DNA from: Candidatus Siliceabacter maunaloa
GTDB lineage: Bacteria; Actinomycetota; Thermoleophilia; Solirubrobacterales; Solirubrobacteraceae
Direction: 5' to 3'
Length of the DNA stretch: 62,108 nt
Assembly: GCA_024330185.1 (NCBI GenBank)
Contig: JANDLV010000020.1
Location: 1 to 62,108, forward strand
This document shows, piece after piece, positions 961 through 43,070 of this stretch. A program made the translations under genes and the position numbers. The notes under the pieces are model-generated. The model was not told the DNA's origin, ran no database searches, and saw only the letters and a program-made list of their open reading frames with translations. Positions within the stretch are counted from its first letter, which is position 1. Every line of letters starts with the position of its first letter.

Positions 961-1737
961 GTGCCGTCGCTCGGGGTCCTCGCCCTCGGCGACTCGATCA
1001 CCAACGGCGGCGGCGAGCTGCAGTGGGGCGTCGCCCTGCAGTCCTGGGCCCTGTGGACCGCGCGCGCCCTCGGCCTGCCCTACAGCCCGTTCGCCACCGA
1101 TGGCGCCACCGCGCGCGACGTCGTGGGCGTGCAACTCCCGGCGCTCGGGTGGCGCAGCGCGCGTCCCGAGGCCCACTACGAGCTGGCCTGCGTCTACATC
1201 GGAGCCAACGACGTCCGCGCCCTCGACTGGGCGGCGGACGCCTTCGAGCGCGACCTCGATGCAACGCACGGCGCGCTGGCGGCGCGCGCGCAGCGGCGCC
1301 TGGCGGTGACGATACCGCTCGATCTGGGGCGCCCGCGCGCCGGGCCCGAGATCGAGGAGGCAAACGCGGCGATCGAGCGCGTGGCCGCTCGCCATGGGGT
1401 GCTGGTACTCGACCTGCGGGGCATGCGCGGCAGGCGCGTGCTCATGGCCGACCATGTGCACCCGACCGCCTTCGGGCAGCTGGCCATCGCCGAGCGGGCG
1501 CTGGACGTGCTGGCCGCCGACGGGATGGAGGTGCTGGAGCGTCCGTGGGAACTGGTGCGCTACGAGACCACCCGCGTGGGGCGCCTGCGCGGCGACGCCA
1601 CGTACGCCTACCGCAGCGCCAAGCAGAGCATTCGGGCTGCGGGAGACCACCTCGGGGCCCGCCTCAGGCAGCCACGTCGGCGGCCTTTCGGCACCCCCGG
1701 GCTCAGCGAGCGGGCGCGGAGGCCTCGGAGGGGCTGA
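961..1737 (+). CDS. SGNH/GDSL hydrolase family protein
   Basis: A 258-residue esterase/lipase-type enzyme. The four SGNH blocks are visible: block I GDSIT with the nucleophile Ser12, block III GAND at residues 81-84, and block V D164-x-x-H167, the rest of the triad. No signal peptide is seen, so it is probably cytoplasmic. A GTG at 961 was taken as start because the GDS motif sits only 10 residues in, as usual. The natural ester substrate cannot be told from sequence. The C-terminal 50 residues are basic and extend beyond the usual fold. Confidence 0.8.
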   Translation: MPSLGVLALGDSITNGGGELQWGVALQSWALWTARALGLPYSPFATDGATARDVVGVQLPALGWRSARPEAHYELACVYIGANDVRALDWAADAFERDLDATHGALAARAQRRLAVTIPLDLGRPRAGPEIEEANAAIERVAARHGVLVLDLRGMRGRRVLMADHVHPTAFGQLAIAERALDVLAADGMEVLERPWELVRYETTRVGRLRGDATYAYRSAKQSIRAAGDHLGARLRQPRRRPFGTPGLSERARRPRRG

Positions 1738-1766
1738 CCGCGGAGGCTGTGGCACCATCTCGCGCC

Positions 1767-2357
1767 GTGTCGCAACTGCCCGTCGAGGAGGCCGTCGCCC
1801 GCTACGCCGCCGGCTTCTTCCCGATGGACGACGACCCGGCCGCGCCCGAGGTGCCCTGGTATGCGGCTGATCCCCGCGCGGTGCTCGAGCTCGACGCAGC
1901 CACCCGGGCCGCGCTGCACCGCCGGCTGCGCCGCAGCCTGGCCCGCGCGCAGCCGGGCTGGGAGCTGCGCCGTGACGGGGCCTTCGAGGCCGTGGTGGCC
2001 GCCTGCGCGCGGCCCCGCGCGTCCGACGACGGCGTGTGGATGACGCCGCGCCTGCGCCGTCAGTACACGCGGCTGCACGCCGTCGGCGTGGCCCACACCT
2101 TCGAGCTGTGGGTGGACGGCGCGCCCGCGGCGGGGATCGTCGCTGTGCTGCTGGGACGCGCGGCGCTGATGGAGTCGATGGTCCACAGCGTGCCCCACGC
2201 GGGCAACGTCCTGCTGGCGCGCACGGTCGATCAGCTGGCCGCAGACGGCTTCACGCTGTGCGACATCCAGCTTCCCACCCCCCACACTGTGCGCCTGGGT
2301 GCGCGGCCGGTCTCCCGCGCGGAGTTCGACGCGCGGCTACGGAAGGCGCTCTCCTAG
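1767..2357 (+). CDS. aat: leucyl/phenylalanyl-tRNA--protein transferase
   Basis: Aat moves Leu or Phe from tRNA to N-terminal Arg/Lys of proteins, marking them for ClpAP-type degradation (N-end rule). Recognisable family blocks are AAGFFPM near the N-terminus, VPWYAADPR, the ESMVHS block (usually ESMFS) and the C-terminal DIQLPTPHTVRLGARPVSR block. It is short, 196 residues against about 230, and divergent: the usual ASK segment reads HAGN. The start was set at GTG 1767, though GTG 1749 is also in frame. Its stop overlaps that of the convergent gene in a shared CTAG. Confidence 0.8.
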   Translation: MSQLPVEEAVARYAAGFFPMDDDPAAPEVPWYAADPRAVLELDAATRAALHRRLRRSLARAQPGWELRRDGAFEAVVAACARPRASDDGVWMTPRLRRQYTRLHAVGVAHTFELWVDGAPAAGIVAVLLGRAALMESMVHSVPHAGNVLLARTVDQLAADGFTLCDIQLPTPHTVRLGARPVSRAEFDARLRKALS

Positions 2358-3223
2358 GCGGCGGTCCACAGCGCCCCGCTGCCCAGCGTCTCGCGCCCGA
2401 GCTCGCCGCGGGCGGCGGCGGTGATCAGCGCCTCTTCGGCGCCCTCGTCGTCCACGATGGCGTTCTCGGGGGCCATGCAGGCGGCGACCTCGCGCGTGGT
2501 CAGCCCCTCGGGGAAGCCGGCCAGCAGCTCGGTCACGTCCTGCGCCGCGCCCCGGCGCTCGATGGAGCGGTCGAGGTTGGCGACGCAGAGATCGAAGGCC
2601 TCCACGGGCTGGAAGCCGCCGGCCTCCAACGTGCGCCCGTCCCGGGCGGCGAAGGTCAGCGACGGCGCGGTGAACCGCCAGGCGCCGTCGGTGTCGGCGG
2701 CCTTGCCCTGGAAGTGCGTCGGCCCGCCCTGCGCGGTGCGCGCCAGGGCGCGGTCGGACTGGTAGGCGGCCTCGACGTCCTCGTCGTCAAGGCGCGCGAC
2801 GACCGCGGCGGGGTCGAGGCCCGCGACGCGGCCCAGGGCCGCAAGGATCGAGTCGTCGTCGTCCATGGGCAGCGCGGTGGTGAACCACGCGAACTGCAGC
2901 GCGCGGAAGGCGGCGACCTCGAGCTCGGGCCGGTCCAGGCGTACGACCACCACCGCGCGGCAGGCGCGGCCCGTGGCCGGGATGCGTTCGCGTGGCTGCG
3001 TGGCGAAGGGCATGCCGCGCACGCGGAAGCGCTGGTAGCCGCGGGCCATCTTCTCGCCGGTGTAGCCCGCCTCCTCGTAGCGCGTGGAGTCCTCGGCCAG
3101 GCCGATCATCACGTGGCGCCAGCGCAGCCCGTCTGCGTAGCGCCAGCGCAGCACGGCCAGCGCGGGGGAGGCGGAGTAGCCCCAGGGGCAGCCGGGGTCG
3201 TTGAAGTGGGTCACGTCGAGCAT
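2354..3223 (-). CDS. DsbA family protein, FrnE-like
   Basis: A 289-residue thioredoxin-fold protein of the DsbA/FrnE/HCCA-isomerase group. The active-site region reads DPGCPWGY, so the CxxC disulphide motif is reduced to one cysteine (C-P-W-G), as in 2-hydroxychromene-2-carboxylate-isomerase-like members. A redox role is therefore doubtful, and a glutathione- or mycothiol-type isomerase or transferase is possible. The start is ATG 3223, with the active site 12 residues in. It is transcribed away from the metallophosphatase at 3283. Confidence 0.7.
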   Translation of the reverse strand: MLDVTHFNDPGCPWGYSASPALAVLRWRYADGLRWRHVMIGLAEDSTRYEEAGYTGEKMARGYQRFRVRGMPFATQPRERIPATGRACRAVVVVRLDRPELEVAAFRALQFAWFTTALPMDDDDSILAALGRVAGLDPAAVVARLDDEDVEAAYQSDRALARTAQGGPTHFQGKAADTDGAWRFTAPSLTFAARDGRTLEAGGFQPVEAFDLCVANLDRSIERRGAAQDVTELLAGFPEGLTTREVAACMAPENAIVDDEGAEEALITAAARGELGRETLGSGALWTAA

Positions 3224-35300: not shown

Positions 35301-35373
<73 letters not shown>

Positions 35374-35411
35374 CTCCCAGCGGAGTCGCTCACGTTGGTG
35401 GACCTTCGGCG

Positions 35412-35636
35412 GTGCGCGCGGAGACCAGGCACTCGCGCATGCGCTCGACTCGAGTATCGGCCTGCGTGGCGCCGGTGCCACACGAACGCTTGAAGTCCGC
35501 GTTGCGCGAGATCGACCCGCCGATGCTGCGCGCATCCGTCGCGCCGCGGCCGCTCGACGCGTGGAAGTGCGCCTCCTGCGTGCCGGACGAGGCGCTCGAG
35601 GACATGCTCGGGGCGCAGGACGCCGATGGGCCGTGA
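35412..35636 (+). CDS. possible small protein in the 35374-35837 gap
   Basis: The 464-base gap after tRNA-Thr holds two overlapping candidates with similar GC3: this 74-residue plus-strand frame from GTG 35412 (ERLKSALREIDPP, WKCASC, DEALEDMLGAQD) and a 91-residue minus-strand frame 35390-35665. The plus-strand product looks more protein-like. Neither resembles a known family, and one or both may be chance. The remaining bases to 35837 show nothing else. Confidence 0.3.
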   Translation: MRAETRHSRMRSTRVSACVAPVPHERLKSALREIDPPMLRASVAPRPLDAWKCASCVPDEALEDMLGAQDADGP

Positions 35637-35837
35637 GCCGCGGTCGTCGTCATCGGTGATTCCATTGTCCTGGCGAGTGCATGAGCCCCCGCCGTTGCGA
35701 ACGAGTCCGACCTGCGCCGTGCTCTGGCGGGGTGGACTCGTCGTGCAATTGGCCCGGTACGCGGTGGTGGCGGTGCGACCTGCACCTCCACTCGCCGGCG
35801 TCCCACGACTTCCGTGACATCGCCCGCCCGATCTGGC

Positions 35838-36056
35838 TCATACGGTGTCGTAGCTCGCGGGCGTGGCCGGCGGCAGGGGCGGAGTAAGGATGCCTCCATA
35901 CTCGTGCATGACCGGCGTCCGAGCCGGCTCGGCGATGTAGCTCATGTGCTCTGCGCGGTGGCGCTTGGCCAGGCACCTCGGGCAATAGTCGGGCGCCAGA
36001 AAGTGCGCGCGCGGGCGGATGGCGAAGTGGCAGTGGGGACAGCTCAGCAGGCTCAT
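35838..36056 (-). CDS. small zinc-ribbon protein
   Basis: A 72-residue protein with CPHC near the N-terminus and CPRC about 20 residues later, a likely zinc ribbon, plus several His residues. Its ATG 36056 overlaps the stop of the second ogt gene (ATGA), so it is the last gene of the sigma-ogt-ogt operon. Function unknown. Confidence 0.6.
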   Translation of the reverse strand: MSLLSCPHCHFAIRPRAHFLAPDYCPRCLAKRHRAEHMSYIAEPARTPVMHEYGGILTPPLPPATPASYDTV

Positions 36057-36601
36057 CTCGCTCTGGTTCCCGCGCAGGCGGGGTCGTTGACCGGCCCTGG
36101 ACGGATTGTCGAGTGGCCGACACCTGTCGCACCGCGGCGCTCGAGGTCGAGGAGCGCCTGCTTGCGCTGCAGCCCGCCGAGGTAGCCGGTCAGCGCGCCG
36201 TCGCTCGCGACCACGCGGTGGCAGGGCACGATGACGGGCACGGGGGTGCGGCCGACCGCCGCCGCGACCGCCCGGACACCACCGGGTCGCCCGAGCGCGC
36301 GGGCCAGCGCGGTGTAGGAGACCGTGGATCCGTAGGGGATCGCCAGCAACCGCTGCCAGACGGTTCGTTGGAAGGGCGTGCCGCCGAGGTCGAGCGCGAG
36401 CTCGAACCGCTGTCGATACCCGGCGAAGTACTCCTCGAGCTGCCGCGCGGGCTCGGCGAACGCCAAGGGCGCGCGGTTCTCCTCGTCGAGTGGTACGCCG
36501 CCCCCGGGGAAGTGCAGCGCGGTGAGTCCCCGCGGGCCGCTGTGCAGGGTGAGCGGCCCGAGCGGACTCTCGTAGATGGTCCACGGGACGGGCCCGCTCA
36601 T
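36053..36601 (-). CDS. methylated-DNA--protein-cysteine methyltransferase (second copy)
   Basis: A 182-residue Ogt/MGMT suicide repair protein that takes O6-alkyl groups from guanine onto its active cysteine. The IVPCHRVV active site, the helix-turn-helix YGSTVSYTALARALGRP and the preceding FQRTVWQRLLAIP block are intact. ATG 36601 overlaps the stop of the first ogt copy by 4 bases. Two unlike copies in tandem suggest different alkyl substrates or dosage. Confidence 0.9.
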   Translation of the reverse strand: MSGPVPWTIYESPLGPLTLHSGPRGLTALHFPGGGVPLDEENRAPLAFAEPARQLEEYFAGYRQRFELALDLGGTPFQRTVWQRLLAIPYGSTVSYTALARALGRPGGVRAVAAAVGRTPVPVIVPCHRVVASDGALTGYLGGLQRKQALLDLERRGATGVGHSTIRPGPVNDPACAGTRAR

Positions 36602-37218
36602 ACCGCGCCCTCCAGGCACAAGAGCTGCGCCTTGGCCTCTGGCCCGCCGCGGTAGGAGCCCAGCGCGCCGTCGGAGCGCAGCACGCGGTGGCAGGGCACC
36701 AGGATCGGCAGCGGGTTGGTGGCCAGCGCAGTGCCCGCCGCCCGTACCGCGGCGGGGCTTCCCGCTTGCGTGGCGACCTGCCGGTACGAGGCGGTCTGCC
36801 CGTAGGGGATCTGCGCGGTGGCGCGCAGCACCTCGCGACGGAACCCCGCGGTCAGGCGCCAGTCCAGTTCGACGTCGAACGCGCGGCGCCAGCCCCCGAA
36901 GTACTCGTCGAGCTGCCGACGCGCGCGGGTCACCGCGTCGCGCGGGGCGAACAGCACCCTGGCCGATACGCGGCGCGCGAGCTCGTCGAGCACCGCGTCC
37001 TCGTCCTCGGACGGCAGTCCGACGCGGACCAGCCCCTCGGGCGTGGCTCCCAGCAGGATCGGCCCCAGCGGCGAGTCGTGACGCTCGAAGGCGACGTCGA
37101 CCAGGTCCTCCGCCTCGGCCCGGGCGGCCAGCTCACGCCGGGTCCGCTCCCAAGCGCCCGGGTCGAGAGGCGCGGCGCTGCGCAGTGACTCCTCCAGGGG
37201 GCTCGTGTCGTCGTTCAT
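36598..37218 (-). CDS. methylated-DNA--protein-cysteine methyltransferase (first copy, N-terminal extension)
   Basis: A 206-residue Ogt/MGMT paralogue with LVPCHRVL and YGQTASYRQVATQAGSP. It has about 40 extra N-terminal residues, acidic and helical (PGAWERTRRELAARAEAEDL), which the second copy lacks. It lies 79 bases after the ECF sigma gene and is coupled to the second ogt through ATGA. The operon layout implies alkylation-damage control by the sigma factor. Confidence 0.9.
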   Translation of the reverse strand: MNDDTSPLEESLRSAAPLDPGAWERTRRELAARAEAEDLVDVAFERHDSPLGPILLGATPEGLVRVGLPSEDEDAVLDELARRVSARVLFAPRDAVTRARRQLDEYFGGWRRAFDVELDWRLTAGFRREVLRATAQIPYGQTASYRQVATQAGSPAAVRAAGTALATNPLPILVPCHRVLRSDGALGSYRGGPEAKAQLLCLEGAV

Positions 37219-37297
37219 GGTCCTCAGACGGTGCCGGGGGCCGGGACGTGAGAGGGCGTCGTCGTGGCATTGGTCGACGCCGGGCGGCAGGTGGCCA

Positions 37298-37810
37298 TCA
37301 TTCTCGACCCTTCCTGAGTTGGACCAGGCCCTCGAAGACGTTGCGCCGAGCCGCGGGCTCGGAGGTCGCCATCACCGCGGCGATCTCGGCGTGCGAGAGG
37401 TCGCCGGCGAAGCGCAGCATCACGGCCTGGCGCTGCTTGTGGGGCAGCGCCCGGACCTCGGCCCAGAGCGTGTCGTCCCGTAACGCGTTCTCCTCCGCGC
37501 CGGCCAGGCTCTCGATGTCCTCGACCGGCTCGGGAGCCCGCGCCCGCGCGCGATGTGTATCGATCGCCTTGCGAGCGGCGATCGAGAACAGCCACGCGCG
37601 GATCGCGCCTGCGTCGCGGACCGCGTCGTAGGCCCGCAGCGCCGATAGCAGGGCCTCCTGGAAGCAGTCCTCGGCGCCCGCAGGCCCGACCTCGACCACG
37701 CAGAATCGCAGCACCGCGGGCCCGTGAAGCTCGACCACCCACTCGAACGGCGGCAGGCTCGCTGTCGCCGTCCTCCCGGTCGTATGTCGCTTCAGCGGAT
37801 CCCGTGCCAT
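37298..37810 (-). CDS. ECF-type RNA polymerase sigma factor
   Basis: A 170-residue sigma factor with region 2 (AEDCFQEALLSALRAYDAV, AIRAWLFSIAARKAIDTHR) and region 4 (LPHKQRQAVMLRFAGDLSH, AEIAAVMATSEPAARRNVFE). No anti-sigma gene is adjacent; instead the two alkyltransferase genes follow. The region 4 recognition helix reads SEPAARRNV, unlike most ECFs. A tiny 25-codon frame overlaps its stop (ATGA) but is probably not meaningful. Confidence 0.8.
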   Translation of the reverse strand: MARDPLKRHTTGRTATASLPPFEWVVELHGPAVLRFCVVEVGPAGAEDCFQEALLSALRAYDAVRDAGAIRAWLFSIAARKAIDTHRARARAPEPVEDIESLAGAEENALRDDTLWAEVRALPHKQRQAVMLRFAGDLSHAEIAAVMATSEPAARRNVFEGLVQLRKGRE

Positions 37811-37924
37811 GCGTCGCCCGCCGGGGTGCGCGACCGCGGCGTCTGTGCACCCTGGATGGGCATGTTGTCGTAAGACGCCCGGACCGACGGTTTCGTGAGG
37901 GGACCGCTCTCGTCCTGCGATCCG

Positions 37925-38254
37925 TCACCGCCTGCGCATCACGTGCCGCTCCTGCCGGTGCCTGCAGCTGGGCGTTGCGCTGGACGGCACGAGAAGGAGC
38001 TCTTTGCCGAGGGTGTCGGTGACCCTCGCGACGGTCCGCGCGGCCGTCGCGACCGCGTCGGCCTCGTCGGCCATGGGCGTGAGGACGTCCTTCATGAGGC
38101 GACGCAGGACGACGAGGGGCGGGTCGGCGTCGAGGGAGGCGTGCTCGCTGTGGGCGAGCATGTGGTCGAGGATCACGGCGAGCTGGCCGTAGGACTGCAG
38201 GAGGGCGTCGACGAGTTCGTCGAGGCCGGGGGAGGGGTGCTGTGGTCGTGTCAT
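37925..38254 (-). CDS. hypothetical helical protein
   Basis: A 109-residue protein of unknown function, mostly helical (LDELVDALLQSYGQLAVILD, LRRLMKDVLTPMADEADAVA). ATG 38254 starts it. It is on the same strand as, and 45 bases downstream of, the rtcB-like gene, so may be in its transcript. Confidence 0.55.
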   Translation of the reverse strand: MTRPQHPSPGLDELVDALLQSYGQLAVILDHMLAHSEHASLDADPPLVVLRRLMKDVLTPMADEADAVATAARTVARVTDTLGKELLLVPSSATPSCRHRQERHVMRRR

Positions 38255-38299
38255 GCCTTCCCTAGGCTCGAGAGGCCGATGTTCGCCCCCCGCGTCGGG

Positions 38300-39469
38300 T
38301 CAGTCCTTGTAGGGGTCGAATGTCTCGGGGGCGGCCATGGCCACGCCGAGCGGCGTGAGGCGGTGCAGGACCTCGATGGTCGGGCCGTGGGCGGCCAGGA
38401 CGGTGTCGAGGCGCTTGTAGGCGGCGGGTGCTTCGTCGGCGGCGGCGCCGCGCAGCTCGACCCCGTGCGCGCCCAGGTCGCGCTGCACCGCGGCGAAGTC
38501 GATGCGGCCCTCCTTGAGCCGGCCGCGGCGCTTGGCCATGCGGCCGCCCGGATGCTCGGGGCACAGCGTGAACGGGTCGTGGTCGCCGAGACCGGCCTGC
38601 GCGCGCTCGTGGCGGAACCGCCCGAAGGGCATCCAGAAGTCGCAGTCGCGCTGCGTGCACTCCGCGCGGTTGCCCATGCGCCCGGCCGCCTGGGTGCGTG
38701 ACATGACCCGGCCGGCGCCGTGGACGGTCGAGTGCAGCAGGTCCGCGCCGGCGGGATCGTCGGTGCCGCGCAGGATCACCGAGGGCTCACCCATGGTCGC
38801 GCCCACGAAGCCCTCCTGGCCGGGGAAGGCGGGGGTGCAGCCCTTGCGGATCACCCAGGCGTCGATGCCGCGGTGACGTTCGCGCCACGCGAAGTTGTGG
38901 TGGTTGTGGACGCTGTAGGTCGCGGACGCGCCGAGGATCTCGAGCACCTTGTCGACGACCACGTCGCGGCCTGCGTAGGCGTACTCGCCGGCCAGCTCCA
39001 TGGCGGCGATGTAGTCCCGCCCCAGCTCGGAGTCGACGTGCAACAGCACCGGCGGCGAATCCATCTCGCCGTCAGGGCCCCGCTCGTCGAAGCGCTTCCC
39101 CGCAGCGAGACTGAGGAAGCCCGACGCCGTCTTGTGCCCGAAGCCCCGCGAGCCAAAATGCACGCCGACCCAGACCAGGCCGTCGTCGCCGGCGAACAGG
39201 TCGATGTAGTGGTTGCCGGCCCCGACCGTGCCCAGCTGGTTGCGCGCGCTCTGGAAGAGCTTGCGCTGTGGGCGAAAGTCGGCCTTGAAGATCGCCTCGA
39301 GCACCGGATGGTCCACCGGCTCCTCGTTCTTGCGCCCCACGCCGAAGGAGATCCGCTCGAAGATCTCGTCCACCGCGTCGCCGGCCTGGGCGCAGCGGCG
39401 CAGCTGCTCGACGGCGCGCTCGTCGACATCGCCGCGGACGGTGATGGGGATCTCGGGCTCGGTGGCCAT
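38300..39469 (-). CDS. RtcB-family RNA ligase-like protein with internal deletion
   Basis: A 389-residue RtcB homologue. RtcB joins 2',3'-cyclic-phosphate and 5'-OH RNA ends using Mn2+ and GTP. Metal and guanylate residues GAGNHY (H87), VHFGSRGFGHK (H104), SVHNHHNFAW and STVHGAGR are present. However, after RRCAQAGDAV (residue 33) the sequence jumps to DEIFERISFGVGRKN, and the roughly 65 residues that normally lie between, with the D-x-H and DIxCG metal-binding Asp and Cys, are missing. The frame is otherwise intact. It is probably inactive as a ligase or has a changed role. Confidence 0.75.
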   Translation of the reverse strand: MATEPEIPITVRGDVDERAVEQLRRCAQAGDAVDEIFERISFGVGRKNEEPVDHPVLEAIFKADFRPQRKLFQSARNQLGTVGAGNHYIDLFAGDDGLVWVGVHFGSRGFGHKTASGFLSLAAGKRFDERGPDGEMDSPPVLLHVDSELGRDYIAAMELAGEYAYAGRDVVVDKVLEILGASATYSVHNHHNFAWRERHRGIDAWVIRKGCTPAFPGQEGFVGATMGEPSVILRGTDDPAGADLLHSTVHGAGRVMSRTQAAGRMGNRAECTQRDCDFWMPFGRFRHERAQAGLGDHDPFTLCPEHPGGRMAKRRGRLKEGRIDFAAVQRDLGAHGVELRGAAADEAPAAYKRLDTVLAAHGPTIEVLHRLTPLGVAMAAPETFDPYKD

Positions 39470-39569
39470 GCAGCGCATGGTGGCGGATGTGCGGGCGGCG
39501 TGGAGCCCTTGCCATGGCGGCGCGTGTCGCCGGCGTTCGCCCGTCCTGGGGTTCGAGCCCGGCGCTGCA

Positions 39570-39616
39570 TCGAGTGTCGACTTGCTGGTCCATAGGGCGA
39601 ACAACTCGACACTCGG
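39570..39616. repeat. palindromic repeat copy 1 (REP-like)
   Basis: Outer arms CGAGTGTCGA (39571-39580) and TCGACACTCG (39606-39615) are identical to those of 59318-59362, and the inner CGAACAA arm is also shared, in opposite orientation. Here the inner pairing is partly lost. It lies about 100 bases upstream of the rtcB-like start and is flanked by two similar 14-bp sequences (39549 and 39618) resembling GGGTTCGAACCC. Confidence 0.65.
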
Positions 39617-39710
39617 TGGGTTCGAACCCGGCCGGTCGGCCCGCTCGCCCCGGTGTTCGCGATCGCGCCCTTGCGCGCGTGCGCCCGCTCCCCTACCGTT
39701 GCTCGTCGCG

Positions 39711-39832
39711 ATGACCGCACGCACGTACAAGCTCCGCACGCCCATCTCCGGCGCCGCCCACGGCGCCGGCGGCTGGAGCTGCTCGCGGTCGGAGCGCCTG
39801 CAGCCGTTCAACGACGCGCGCGACGGCGTCTA
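39711..39832 (+). CDS. possible 40-residue protein
   Basis: A short frame from ATG 39711 with high GC3 (TARTYKLRTPISGAAHGAGG, then SERLQPFNDARDGV). It sits in the 379-base gap between the rtcB-like gene and the coiled-coil gene, 16 bases before the latter. No family is recognised, and it could be a leader peptide or chance. Confidence 0.3.
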
Positions 39833-39848
39833 GCGGGAGGTCATCATC

Positions 39849-41048
39849 ATGGCTCCCGCGACGTTCGCGGGAGCCGCGCCCCAGGTCCGACAGGGCCGGG
39901 TGGTGTGGGACCGTGACGCGATCATCAGCGCCATCCGTGAGTGGGTGGCCACATACGGCGAGCCGCCCCGTGCGGCCGACTGGAACCCGTCCTCGGCGAA
40001 GTGGTCGCGGCAGGAGTGGCGCATCGAGCGCTACCGCGCCGGGCGTGCCGACGGGTCGCCCTGGCCCGCGCTGAACTCGGCCAAGCGGCCGTTCGGCGGG
40101 TCGCTGTCGGAGGCCATCCGCGCGGCGGGCTTCGAGCCGGCCAGGCCGGGGCCCCGGCGCCGCACTGACGTCGATCTCGCCCGTGCCGACCGCTCTACCG
40201 TCGATGTCGAGGGTCACGCGCTGCTGGACGCCGCGCTCACGCAGGTGCGCGCTGCCGACCGGCGCGTGGCCGTGCTCGAGGGCGGGCTGGAGCGGGCGCG
40301 CGCGAGCGCCGAGCGCTTCCGCGTGGAGCGCGACGCGGCGCGGCGCTCGGCCAAGGCCGCGTTGAAGCCCAAGGTGGTCCGTGAGCGCGTCGTCGACGGC
40401 GCGGCGATCGCCCGTGCCCGGCGCCGGGCCGACGCCGCCGCGGCGAAGGCCGACACGGCCGTCCGTGAGGCCCGCGAGCACCGCGATCAGGTTGCCCGTG
40501 CGCGGGCCGACGCGGTCGAGGCGGGCACGGCGGCCAAGCGGCTGGCGGCGCGGCTGGAGCGCTCCGAGGCGACGATCGGCACGCTGCGCGACGAGCGCGG
40601 CGAGCTCAAGGGCGAGGTGGATCGGCTGGCCGACCGGCTGGTGGTCGCTGAGCGCCTGCTCGCGGGCGCTCGGGCGGAGGCGGCGCGGGCTGACGAGGTC
40701 GGGCCCGAGGTGGTCACCGTGCGCGAGGAGGCGCCCGAGGCCGCCGAGGTGCGCGCCGCGCAGGCCGAGGCCGCCCGGGCGCGCCGCACCGCCCGGGACG
40801 CCGAGCTGCGCGCCGCCCGCGCCGAGCGCGAGCTGCGCGAGACGGTGGCCGCGGTTCGCGGCGAGGCGCGCCGGCTCACCCCCGCCGAGCTGGCCGAGCT
40901 GCGCGCCGACGGCCCCTCGGGCCCCGCCATCATGGCCGAGGCCCTCAAGGCCCTGTCGGCCGCCCGGACCACAGCCAACCCGACGCGCACGCAGGCCGCC
41001 CTGCGCCACGTCGCCCAGGCGGCCGTCACCTGGCAGGAGCGGATCTGA
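39849..41048 (+). CDS. coiled-coil protein with N-terminal homing-endonuclease-associated repeat
   Basis: A 399-residue protein. Residues 18-95 match the repeat found with homing endonucleases and common in this lineage (WDRDAIISAIREWVATYGEP, later FGGSLSEAIRAAGFEPARPG). Residues about 120-360 are an almost unbroken Ala/Arg/Glu coiled coil, and a short helical C-terminus ends in TWQERI. The first part is a likely DNA-binding module, so a DNA-tethered coiled-coil protein is plausible. No catalytic domain is present. Confidence 0.7.
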   Translation: MAPATFAGAAPQVRQGRVVWDRDAIISAIREWVATYGEPPRAADWNPSSAKWSRQEWRIERYRAGRADGSPWPALNSAKRPFGGSLSEAIRAAGFEPARPGPRRRTDVDLARADRSTVDVEGHALLDAALTQVRAADRRVAVLEGGLERARASAERFRVERDAARRSAKAALKPKVVRERVVDGAAIARARRRADAAAAKADTAVREAREHRDQVARARADAVEAGTAAKRLAARLERSEATIGTLRDERGELKGEVDRLADRLVVAERLLAGARAEAARADEVGPEVVTVREEAPEAAEVRAAQAEAARARRTARDAELRAARAERELRETVAAVRGEARRLTPAELAELRADGPSGPAIMAEALKALSAARTTANPTRTQAALRHVAQAAVTWQERI

Positions 41049-41224: not shown

Positions 41225-41983
41225 TCAGTCCACCAGCCGCCGCTGCATCGAGACGCCCGCCAGCCACCACATCGCCGCCCCGAAGGCCAGCAGCGCGCCG
41301 ACGTGAATGGCGTCGGCGCCCGGCTCGAAGCCGAAGGCCGCGTGGCGCACCAGCTCGACGCAGTGGTAGAGCGGGTTGACCTGCGCGAGCACGCTGGCCA
41401 GCTCGGGCAGGGCGGTGATCGGGAAGAACGTGCCGGCCACCAGGAAGAGCGGCGTGAGCACGGCGCTGATGACGTAGTTGAAGTTCTCGATCGAGTTCAT
41501 CCGTGCGGCGATGGTGATCCCGAAGCAGGCCCACCCGAAGCCGGCGGTGAACGCGATGAAGGGCACCACCAGCATTCCCGCGCGCGGATCCAGGCCGAAG
41601 GCGATGGCCACCAGCAGCGGCACGCACCCGTAGGTGCCTGCTCGCGCGGCGATCCACAGCGCCTCGGCGGTGACGATCTCGCGGGCATCGACGGGCGCGG
41701 CCATGATCGCGTCGTAGGTGCGCTGGAACTTGTACTTGACGAAGGTGGAGAACATGGCCGGGAAGGCGCTGGAGAAGAGGACCGCCGTGGCCACCACGCC
41801 GGTGCCCACGAACTCGATGTAGTCGAGCCCCGCGACCTCGGAGACCAGCGAGCCGAAGCCGAAGCCAAAGGCCAGCAGGTAGATGGTCGGCTCGACCGTC
41901 GAGGAGAACGTGGTCGCACGCCAGTAGGCCGAGAAGTTGACGACCTCGCGCACCAGCACCCCGGTCAGCGACGGGCGGTTCAC
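41225..41983 (-). CDS. ABC-2 type transporter permease (NodJ-like)
   Basis: A 252-residue permease with about six membrane segments. Landmarks: FSSTVEPTIYLLAFGFGFGS, the loop KYKFQRTYDAIMAAPVDARE, and the family block TPLFLVAGTFFPITALPE. GTG 41983 overlaps the ATPase stop (GTGA). With the ATPase it makes a NodIJ/DrrAB-type exporter, the second in this window and distinct from that at 10.9-12.6 kb. Confidence 0.85.
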   Translation of the reverse strand: MNRPSLTGVLVREVVNFSAYWRATTFSSTVEPTIYLLAFGFGFGSLVSEVAGLDYIEFVGTGVVATAVLFSSAFPAMFSTFVKYKFQRTYDAIMAAPVDAREIVTAEALWIAARAGTYGCVPLLVAIAFGLDPRAGMLVVPFIAFTAGFGWACFGITIAARMNSIENFNYVISAVLTPLFLVAGTFFPITALPELASVLAQVNPLYHCVELVRHAAFGFEPGADAIHVGALLAFGAAMWWLAGVSMQRRLVD

Positions 41984-42879
41984 TCGATCTCCTCCCCGGT
42001 AAGCAGCACGAAGACGTCCTCCAGGTTGGCCGCCCGGCGCTCGCCCTCGGGCAGGTCGCCGTCCAGCGCCTCGGCGCCCAGGATCGACACGCTCGTCCCG
42101 GTGCGCCGTACGGCCCACCCGCGCGCGTGCGCGTGAGCCTCCACCTCGGCCAGCCGCGGCGGCGGCCCGTAGACCTCCACGGCGTCACGGCCGGCGTGCT
42201 TGGTCACCAGCTCGCGCGGCGCTCCGGCGGCCACGGCCCGGCCCTCGGCCATGATCGTGACCGTGTCGGCCAGCCGCGCGGCCTCCTCGATGTAGTGGGT
42301 GGACATCAGCATCGACACTCCCTCGGCGCGCAGCGCGCCGATCAGCGCCCACAGCTCCTGGCGCACCTGCGGATCGAGGCCCACCGTCGGCTCGTCGAGG
42401 AGGAGGAGCTGCGGACGGTGCACGAGCGCGCGGGCGATCAGCAGCCGCCGGCGCATCCCGCCCGAGAGCTCGTCGACCTTCGAGGCGCGCCGGTCGGTGA
42501 GCTTGGCGAGCTGCAGCGCGCGCTCGATGGCCGGCTTGCGCTCCGCTCGCGCGACCCGGTAGAGATAGGTGAACACGAGCAGGTTCTGCTCGACGGTCAG
42601 CGCCTCGTCGAGGTTGTCCTGCTGGGGCACGACCCCCATGAACGCCCGCGCGGCCTTCGAGTCCCCGGGCAGCGTGCGCCCCAGCACCTCGATCTCGCCC
42701 TCGTCGGCGATGGCCTGCGCGGTGAGCAGGCGCATGGTCGTCGACTTGCCCGCGCCGTTGGGGCCCAGCAGCCCGACGCACGTGCCGGTCGGCACGTCGA
42801 GGTTCAAACCCGCGACCGCGGTGATGGGGCCGTAGCGCTTGACGGCGCCGCGCAGGCGGATGGCGGGGGCGGGGGGCAC
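41980..42879 (-). CDS. ABC transporter ATP-binding protein (NodI-like)
   Basis: A 299-residue ATPase: Walker A GPNGAGKST, signature [17 protein letters not shown], Walker B LLLLDEPTVGLD, switch STHYIEEA. The C-terminal 70 residues form the extra domain of NodI/DrrA-type ATPases ending in LEDVFVLLTG. GTG 42879 starts the operon. The substrate is unknown. Confidence 0.9.
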   Translation of the reverse strand: MPPAPAIRLRGAVKRYGPITAVAGLNLDVPTGTCVGLLGPNGAGKSTTMRLLTAQAIADEGEIEVLGRTLPGDSKAARAFMGVVPQQDNLDEALTVEQNLLVFTYLYRVARAERKPAIERALQLAKLTDRRASKVDELSGGMRRRLLIARALVHRPQLLLLDEPTVGLDPQVRQELWALIGALRAEGVSMLMSTHYIEEAARLADTVTIMAEGRAVAAGAPRELVTKHAGRDAVEVYGPPPRLAEVEAHAHARGWAVRRTGTSVSILGAEALDGDLPEGERRAANLEDVFVLLTGEEIE

Positions 42880-43070
42880 GCCCGGAGGCTAGACCTCACT
42901 GGGATAATCGACCTCGACGACGCCCACCCGCCCGGATCGTGACCCGCTCGCCCACAACCGCTCCTGTCCCCCGGAGGCCCTCGCGGTCGCCCAGGAGCTC
43001 GTCGAGCACGACACCATCCTTCAGGCTGCCCCCGGGTGCGCCCCCGCCGGCGCCGGAGCGCGTCGGCCAC

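What the first reader, a model, noticed from the sequence alone, without database searches (positions are those of the whole stretch)
38300..39469. RtcB-like protein lacking about 65 residues that carry metal-binding Asp and Cys
Residues up to AGDAV match the N-terminus and from DEIFERISFGVG the middle of RtcB, but the usual segment between, with D-x-H and the D-x-x-C metal motif, is absent, while the frame and all other active-site histidines remain. A clean in-frame loss with the rest conserved suggests either recent deletion or a repurposed protein.
Basis: partly seen in the sequence, partly recalled or inferred. Interest (0 to 1): 0.5.

Follow-up and report, generated by a model that had tools for sequence, protein, structure and literature searches.

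The report
RNA ligase gene missing active-site segment
An actinobacterial draft genome holds one gene for the RNA-repair enzyme RtcB, and 177 bases covering part of its active site are gone without disturbing the reading frame; it is most likely a recently broken copy of a gene this group of bacteria can live without.

Summary
Gene 38300-39469 (-) encodes a 389-residue RtcB homologue lacking 59 residues (not about 65) against its nearest orthologue. The lost block carries the D-x-H and D-x-x-C motifs, equivalent to Asp95 and Cys98 of Pyrococcus RtcB; Cys98 binds both Mn ions. Frame and four other active-site histidines remain. In a 64-row alignment of whole-looking genes, only the window lacks the block. 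It is the only RtcB match in a 95%-complete genome, and the block was not found elsewhere there. The window nests among orthologues that have the block, on a short branch, with no excess of replacements. The predicted model loses three core strands. Related genomes hold other broken orthologues, and another genome of the genus lacks rtcB at the matching locus. Best reading: a recent 177-bp in-frame deletion leaving a probably inactive allele of a dispensable repair gene. Assembly error cannot be excluded without reads; repurposing is possible but unsupported. In passing: tRNA T-arm-like motifs lie upstream of rtcB in 11 of 13 clade members.

The parts
38300..39469 (-). rtcB-like gene, 389 aa, with an internal in-frame deletion
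39370..39371 (-). deletion junction between codons V33 and D34; 59 residues (177 bp) absent relative to L033
39209..39211 (-). codon of H87 (equivalent of Pyrococcus His203), retained
   Evidence: equivalence counted on the printed alignment
39158..39160 (-). codon of H104 (equivalent of His234), retained
   Evidence: equivalence counted on the printed alignment
38897..38899 (-). codon of H191 (taken as equivalent of His329), retained
   Evidence: equivalence inferred
38720..38722 (-). codon of H250 (taken as equivalent of the nucleophile His404), retained
   Evidence: equivalence inferred
39849..41048 (+). divergent neighbour gene used as synteny marker; no Pfam match

Best explanation
This is the only rtcB gene seen in the genome, after a recent in-frame deletion of 177 bp. 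Shown: the block is absent; it is present in the orthologues compared; the rest is collinear, in frame and not accelerated; no second rtcB or stray block is seen in the assembly. Inferred: the break joined two points sharing at most about three bases; the product lacks the Asp and Cys ligands and three core strands, so it should not hold two Mn ions with GTP, should not guanylylate its remaining histidine and should not ligate RNA, and it may not fold; the loss was tolerated because this RtcB is an accessory RNA-repair enzyme.
For: Missing block defined against orthologues; single PF01139 match; 60-aa probe negative in G000 and positive in G007, G050, G028, G051. Of 25 close orthologues (E<=1e-100) among 146 family genomes searched, G000 is the only one without the block. 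Tree: window end branch 0.1 inside an 11-row clade (95/92). No excess of replacements in 18 Tajima comparisons; 1 of 109 otherwise invariant columns broken, others 0 to 7. Ligand roles from passages of PMC10630183. Model loses strands 31-39, 46-52, 68-77 of the intact orthologue; TM to 1uc2_A normalised on the target 0.52 against 0.64. Dispensability: 117 of 146 family genomes have no match at E<=1e-20; G001, labelled same genus, has the flanking genes but no rtcB; other damaged orthologues.
Against: No sign of decay in the rest of the gene, which a long-dead gene would show; so the deletion must be young, or the protein is still of use. AlphaFold gives the shortened chain a confident model (pLDDT 91.8), though built on an alignment of intact relatives. 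No reads were available to confirm the junction.
Confidence: 0.8

Rival explanations
1. The gap is an artefact (chimeric reads, misassembly) or a minority strain variant; the organism has an intact rtcB.
For: The window is a contig of a 120-contig draft genome; reads could not be seen; the rest of the gene evolves as if functional.
Against: The two ends share at most about three bases, too few for graph-based assembly to join by itself (inference from how such assemblers work); the join is exactly in frame; no N in the window.
Confidence: 0.13
2. The protein has been repurposed: a ligase-dead RtcB kept as an RNA-binding or regulatory protein.
For: The rest of the protein is conserved like intact orthologues, including four active-site histidines. 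The start of the abstract of PMC9650030, seen in a listing, says RtcAB catalytic activity is not needed to bind the RtcR CARF domain.
Against: No RtcR and no archease found in the genome (controls rang in 1 and 6 of 14 genomes). No relative shares the gap. Three core strands are lost. One random deletion in three keeps frame.
Confidence: 0.05
3. A natural RtcB subfamily lacks this block and the window belongs to it.
For: None found. One other lineage (G032/G060) has an in-frame loss, but of a different 62-residue block.
Against: The nearest relatives on the tree have the block, and so do 63 of 64 aligned rows.
Confidence: 0.02

Closest known systems
RtcB 3'-5' RNA ligase (PF01139; Pyrococcus horikoshii PH1602, PDB 1uc2 and 4dwr)
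   Same: Same family by sequence (159.2 bits; best PDB E 8.7e-16) and by predicted fold; four active-site histidines kept.
   Different: Lacks the block with the Asp95 and Cys98 equivalents and three core strands; activity therefore doubtful.
Intact orthologues in Solirubrobacteraceae and Patulibacter (L033, L113, L114 and others)
   Same: 74-81% identical, collinear elsewhere; in G007, G050 and G107 the same divergent neighbour gene lies beside rtcB.
   Different: They have the 59-residue block.
Deleted rtcB of G032/G060
   Same: In-frame loss of about 60 residues including metal-ligand residues in the same orthologous group.
   Different: Different block (with the GNH and HFGSRG histidines); the two assemblies are 99.8% identical over 12.8 kb, so one lineage.
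RtcB2 / release-factor-linked RtcB (TIGR03073, PRK09588)
   Same: RtcB superfamily.
   Different: 51.2 bits against 271.8 and 77.8 against 407.

Membership tests
RtcB (PF01139), by descent | Sequence match over the curated cut-off | tested here: met
   159.2 bits, cut-off 27
RtcB as a working ligase | Asp and Cys metal ligands (Asp95, Cys98) | tested here: not met
   Absent; present in 63 of 64 aligned rows; roles from passages of PMC10630183
RtcB as a working ligase | Four active-site histidines (203, 234, 329, 404) | tested here: met
   H87, H104, H191, H250; columns H in 64 of 64 rows
RtcB as a working ligase | Complete core fold | tested here: not met
   Model lacks strands 31-39, 46-52, 68-77 of the orthologue; a prediction only
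RtcB as a working ligase | Mn/GTP binding, guanylylation, RNA ligation | not testable with these tools
   Needs protein assays
RtcB2 / TIGR03073 | Score over the curated cut-off | tested here: not met
   51.2 against 271.8 bits

The most novel reading that the evidence does not exclude
The deletion produced a ligase-dead RtcB that this lineage keeps as an RNA- or tRNA-fragment-binding protein, its gene governed by the tRNA T-arm-like elements that lie in front of it.
Probability: 0.04. Interest if true: 0.65.

Novelty: new member of a known kind. Interest (0 to 1): 0.22.

Why it matters
As read here it is one more broken allele of an accessory RNA-repair ligase. Its use is as a warning that an RtcB annotation in this group need not mean RtcB activity, and as a sign that this RtcB clade is lost or damaged repeatedly. 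If the product were kept for another purpose it would be a natural ligase-dead RtcB; the listings of the searches showed no title or abstract start describing one.

Tried and rejected
Rejected. (1) Block moved elsewhere in the genome: the 60-aa probe has no match in G000 at E<=10, while it finds the block in four control genomes; in G001 it gives only two noise-level hits, E 0.23 and 0.63. (2) Second intact rtcB: one PF01139 match only. (3) Loss of an intein with its surroundings: G027 has a 450-residue intein-like insert at DIG|C, inside the region lost in the window, but nothing in the window points to a former intein. (4) Faster evolution since the deletion: not seen. (5) Long direct repeats at the break: the scan of L033 5060-5300 lists none that joins the two ends. 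(6) A known RNA in front of the window's rtcB: no tRNA by ARAGORN and only two below-threshold, unrelated Rfam hits in 37000-41000.

Led nowhere: the methyltransferase, sigma-factor and small genes next to rtcB gave no functional link. My first count of the upstream motif measured from row starts lying up to 84 bases before the start codon; it was redone with corrected starts, and only one search is used.

Full report
What is there. The window is contig C34 of a 3.79-Mb, 120-contig genome, 95.4% complete and 0.55% contaminated. Its best named relatives for this gene are Solirubrobacteraceae and Patulibacter. ORF 38300-39469 (-) gives a 389-aa protein whose only Pfam match is RtcB, PF01139, 159.2 bits against a cut-off of 27.

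The gap. Against P0002 (the L033 orthologue, 445 aa, 81% identical) exactly 59 residues are missing, P0002 31-89, between V33 and D34 of the window protein; both flanks stay in frame and without stops. The block carries CADAH (D37, H39) and GYDIGC (D64, C67). On the printed phmmer alignment with P. horikoshii RtcB I count these as positions 65, 67, 95 and 98. Passages I read of the review PMC10630183 say that Cys98, His234 and His329 hold one Mn and Asp95, Cys98 and His203 the other. So a ligand of both metals and one further ligand are gone, while H87, H104, H191 and H250 remain.

Is it peculiar to this genome? In the 64-row alignment D37, H39, D64 and C67 are present in 63 of 64 rows; only the window lacks them. 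The alignment took 62 of the 99 references plus L033 and the window. Left out before that list were copies of the window, split or damaged rows (L018/L130, L021/L022, L034/L122, L064/L131/L136, L065), L069 (large insert, but with DAHLGY), duplicates and rows under 330 aa; so this count concerns whole-looking genes. In the wider search of 146 family genomes, 29 match at E<=1e-20 and 25 of these at E<=1e-100. G000 is the only one of the 25 without the block, with these qualifications: G141 starts at residue 35, where its locus ends; G177 changes frame inside the block, near residues 54-59; G027 has a 450-residue intein-like insert at DIG|C; G032/G060 keep it but lack another block. A 60-aa probe finds the block in G007, G050, G028 and G051, not in G000. 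PF01139 gives one match in G000. Of 399 genomes drawn from the class, 43 match at E<=1e-40. None of the listed matches shows this gap with both sides present, but some listed matches are fragments that do not cover the block: G293 (80-229, one stop) and a second copy in G080 (74-203).

When and how. The tree places the window, end branch 0.1, in an 11-row clade whose other 10 rows have the block (support 95/92; order inside unresolved). Raw pN and pS of the window against L033 and L113 (0.128 and 0.129; 0.417 and 0.383) are like those of L033 against L113 (0.134; 0.373). Of 18 Tajima comparisons none shows a significant excess in the window; the largest, chi2 5.77, comes from fewer changes in the window, 12 against 27. 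Of 109 columns invariant in the other 25 rows the window breaks 1, the other rows 0 to 7; within the 11-row clade it breaks 5 of 214, the others 0 to 10. So either the deletion is young compared with the split from the nearest sequenced relatives, or the protein is still constrained; these data do not separate the two. Relatives read GTC or GTG followed by G on the left of the break and ATG GAC on the right, so at most about three bases (TGG) are shared. One random deletion in three keeps frame, so the clean frame proves little.

Effect on the protein. AlphaFold2 models were made from the same 64 rows with either protein first. The intact orthologue (pLDDT 95.2, pTM 0.91) has strands 31-39, 46-52 and 68-77 and the first half of helix 78-95 in the lost block. 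The window model (pLDDT 91.8, pTM 0.84) lacks these strands, has one fused helix 17-39, and block means of 58 to 76 over its first 30 residues. Against 1uc2_A the TM-score normalised on the target is 0.52 for the window and 0.64 for the orthologue, E 2.2e-15 and 2.7e-29. High pLDDT from an alignment of intact relatives does not prove that the shortened chain folds.

Why it could be lost. 117 of 146 family genomes have no match at E<=1e-20. G001, labelled same genus (87% complete), matches the neighbour gene at 39849-41048, the stretch 41225-42891 beyond it and the tRNA-Thr stretch 35321-35373, all on one contig; between neighbour gene and tRNA it has other ORFs and no rtcB (best tblastn E 0.41). 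In G007, G050 and G107 the neighbour gene lies beside rtcB. Other orthologues are damaged. G032 and G060 lack a different block of 62 residues relative to L009, with the GNH and HFGSRG histidines; they are 99.8% identical over 12.8 kb, so one event. Patulibacter medicamentivorans (L034/L122) and Patulibacter HTM.34 (L064/L131) have the gene in two frames, which may be sequencing error. Passages of PMC5175333 name Keio in-frame deletions of E. coli rtcB, so the gene is not essential there. All this fits an accessory gene.

Conclusion. A recent 177-bp in-frame deletion in the only rtcB seen in this genome, most probably inactivating (0.8). By descent it is an RtcB; of the requirements for a working RtcB, the Asp and Cys ligands and the complete core are not met. 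Assembly fault or strain variant (0.13), repurposing (0.05) and a natural subfamily (0.02) remain. Literature searches for RtcB with paralogues, pseudogenes, inactive forms and Solirubrobacter listed nothing on such a form by title or abstract start; the last found 0 papers.

Side result. The region before rtcB holds tRNA T-arm-like motifs. With the expression G[GA]nTCGAn[CT]C on either strand, the 200 bases before the aligned start hold 15 hits in 2,600 bases for 13 clade members (11 of 13 have one), against 20 in 149,666 bases elsewhere in the same loci, a 43-fold excess; with annotated tRNA genes left out, 14 hits (10 of 13) against 18, 45-fold. Eight relatives outside the clade have 0 hits in 1,600 bases. 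The expression was chosen after some of the hits had been seen, and the members are related, so the fold excess is not a probability. In all of G000 GGGTTCGARCCC occurs at four places: the T arms of a tRNA-Ala and a tRNA-Gly, and the two before rtcB. In G004 a true tRNA-Tyr lies just before rtcB and supplies the motif. No tRNA was found there in the window, nor at that place by Rfam in the seven other loci tested. Passages of PMC7790460 describe rsr-yrlBA-rtcBA operons whose YrlA RNA has a tRNA-like domain; no TROVE protein was found in 11 of 11 genomes tested, so I do not claim a Y RNA.

Noticed in passing
window 39549-39560 and 39618-39629, with inverted repeat 39568-39591 / 39595-39618: tRNA T-arm-like motifs (GGGTTCGAGCCC, GGGTTCGAACCC) upstream of rtcB; 2 hits in the window against 0.12 expected, only four places in the whole genome, the other two being tRNA T arms. 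Similar motifs lie upstream of rtcB in 11 of 13 clade members, about 43 times denser than elsewhere in the same loci. Could be a tRNA-like leader, a palindromic protein-binding site or a decayed tRNA gene.
   Followed up: partly
L009 2830-2911 (-), beside rtcB 1501-2808 (-): In G004 a tRNA-Tyr gene lies directly upstream of rtcB on the same strand.
   Followed up: partly
L021 and L022 (G032:C99, G060:C93): The orthologue lacks a different 62-residue block in frame, with two other metal-site histidines; the two genomes, listed as separate species, are 99.8% identical over 12.8 kb here.
   Followed up: partly
L130 (G027:C457): 450-residue intein-like insert between DIG and the metal-binding Cys of RtcB, starting with Cys and ending VVHN before the next Cys; intein character judged by eye.
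   Followed up: partly
window 35301-39850 and L156: Between the tRNA-Thr and the neighbour gene at 39849 the window and its congener G001 carry different genes, so this looks like a variable site.
   Followed up: partly
window 36053-36619 and 36598-37218 (-): Two overlapping tandem O6-methylguanine-DNA methyltransferase genes next to a sigma-70-type factor gene at 37298-37810.
   Followed up: no
L017/L126 (G008): Orthologue with the Cys-containing insert (P0002 residues about 321-366) replaced by a short loop, as in distant RtcB proteins; the insert varies widely in the clade.
   Followed up: no
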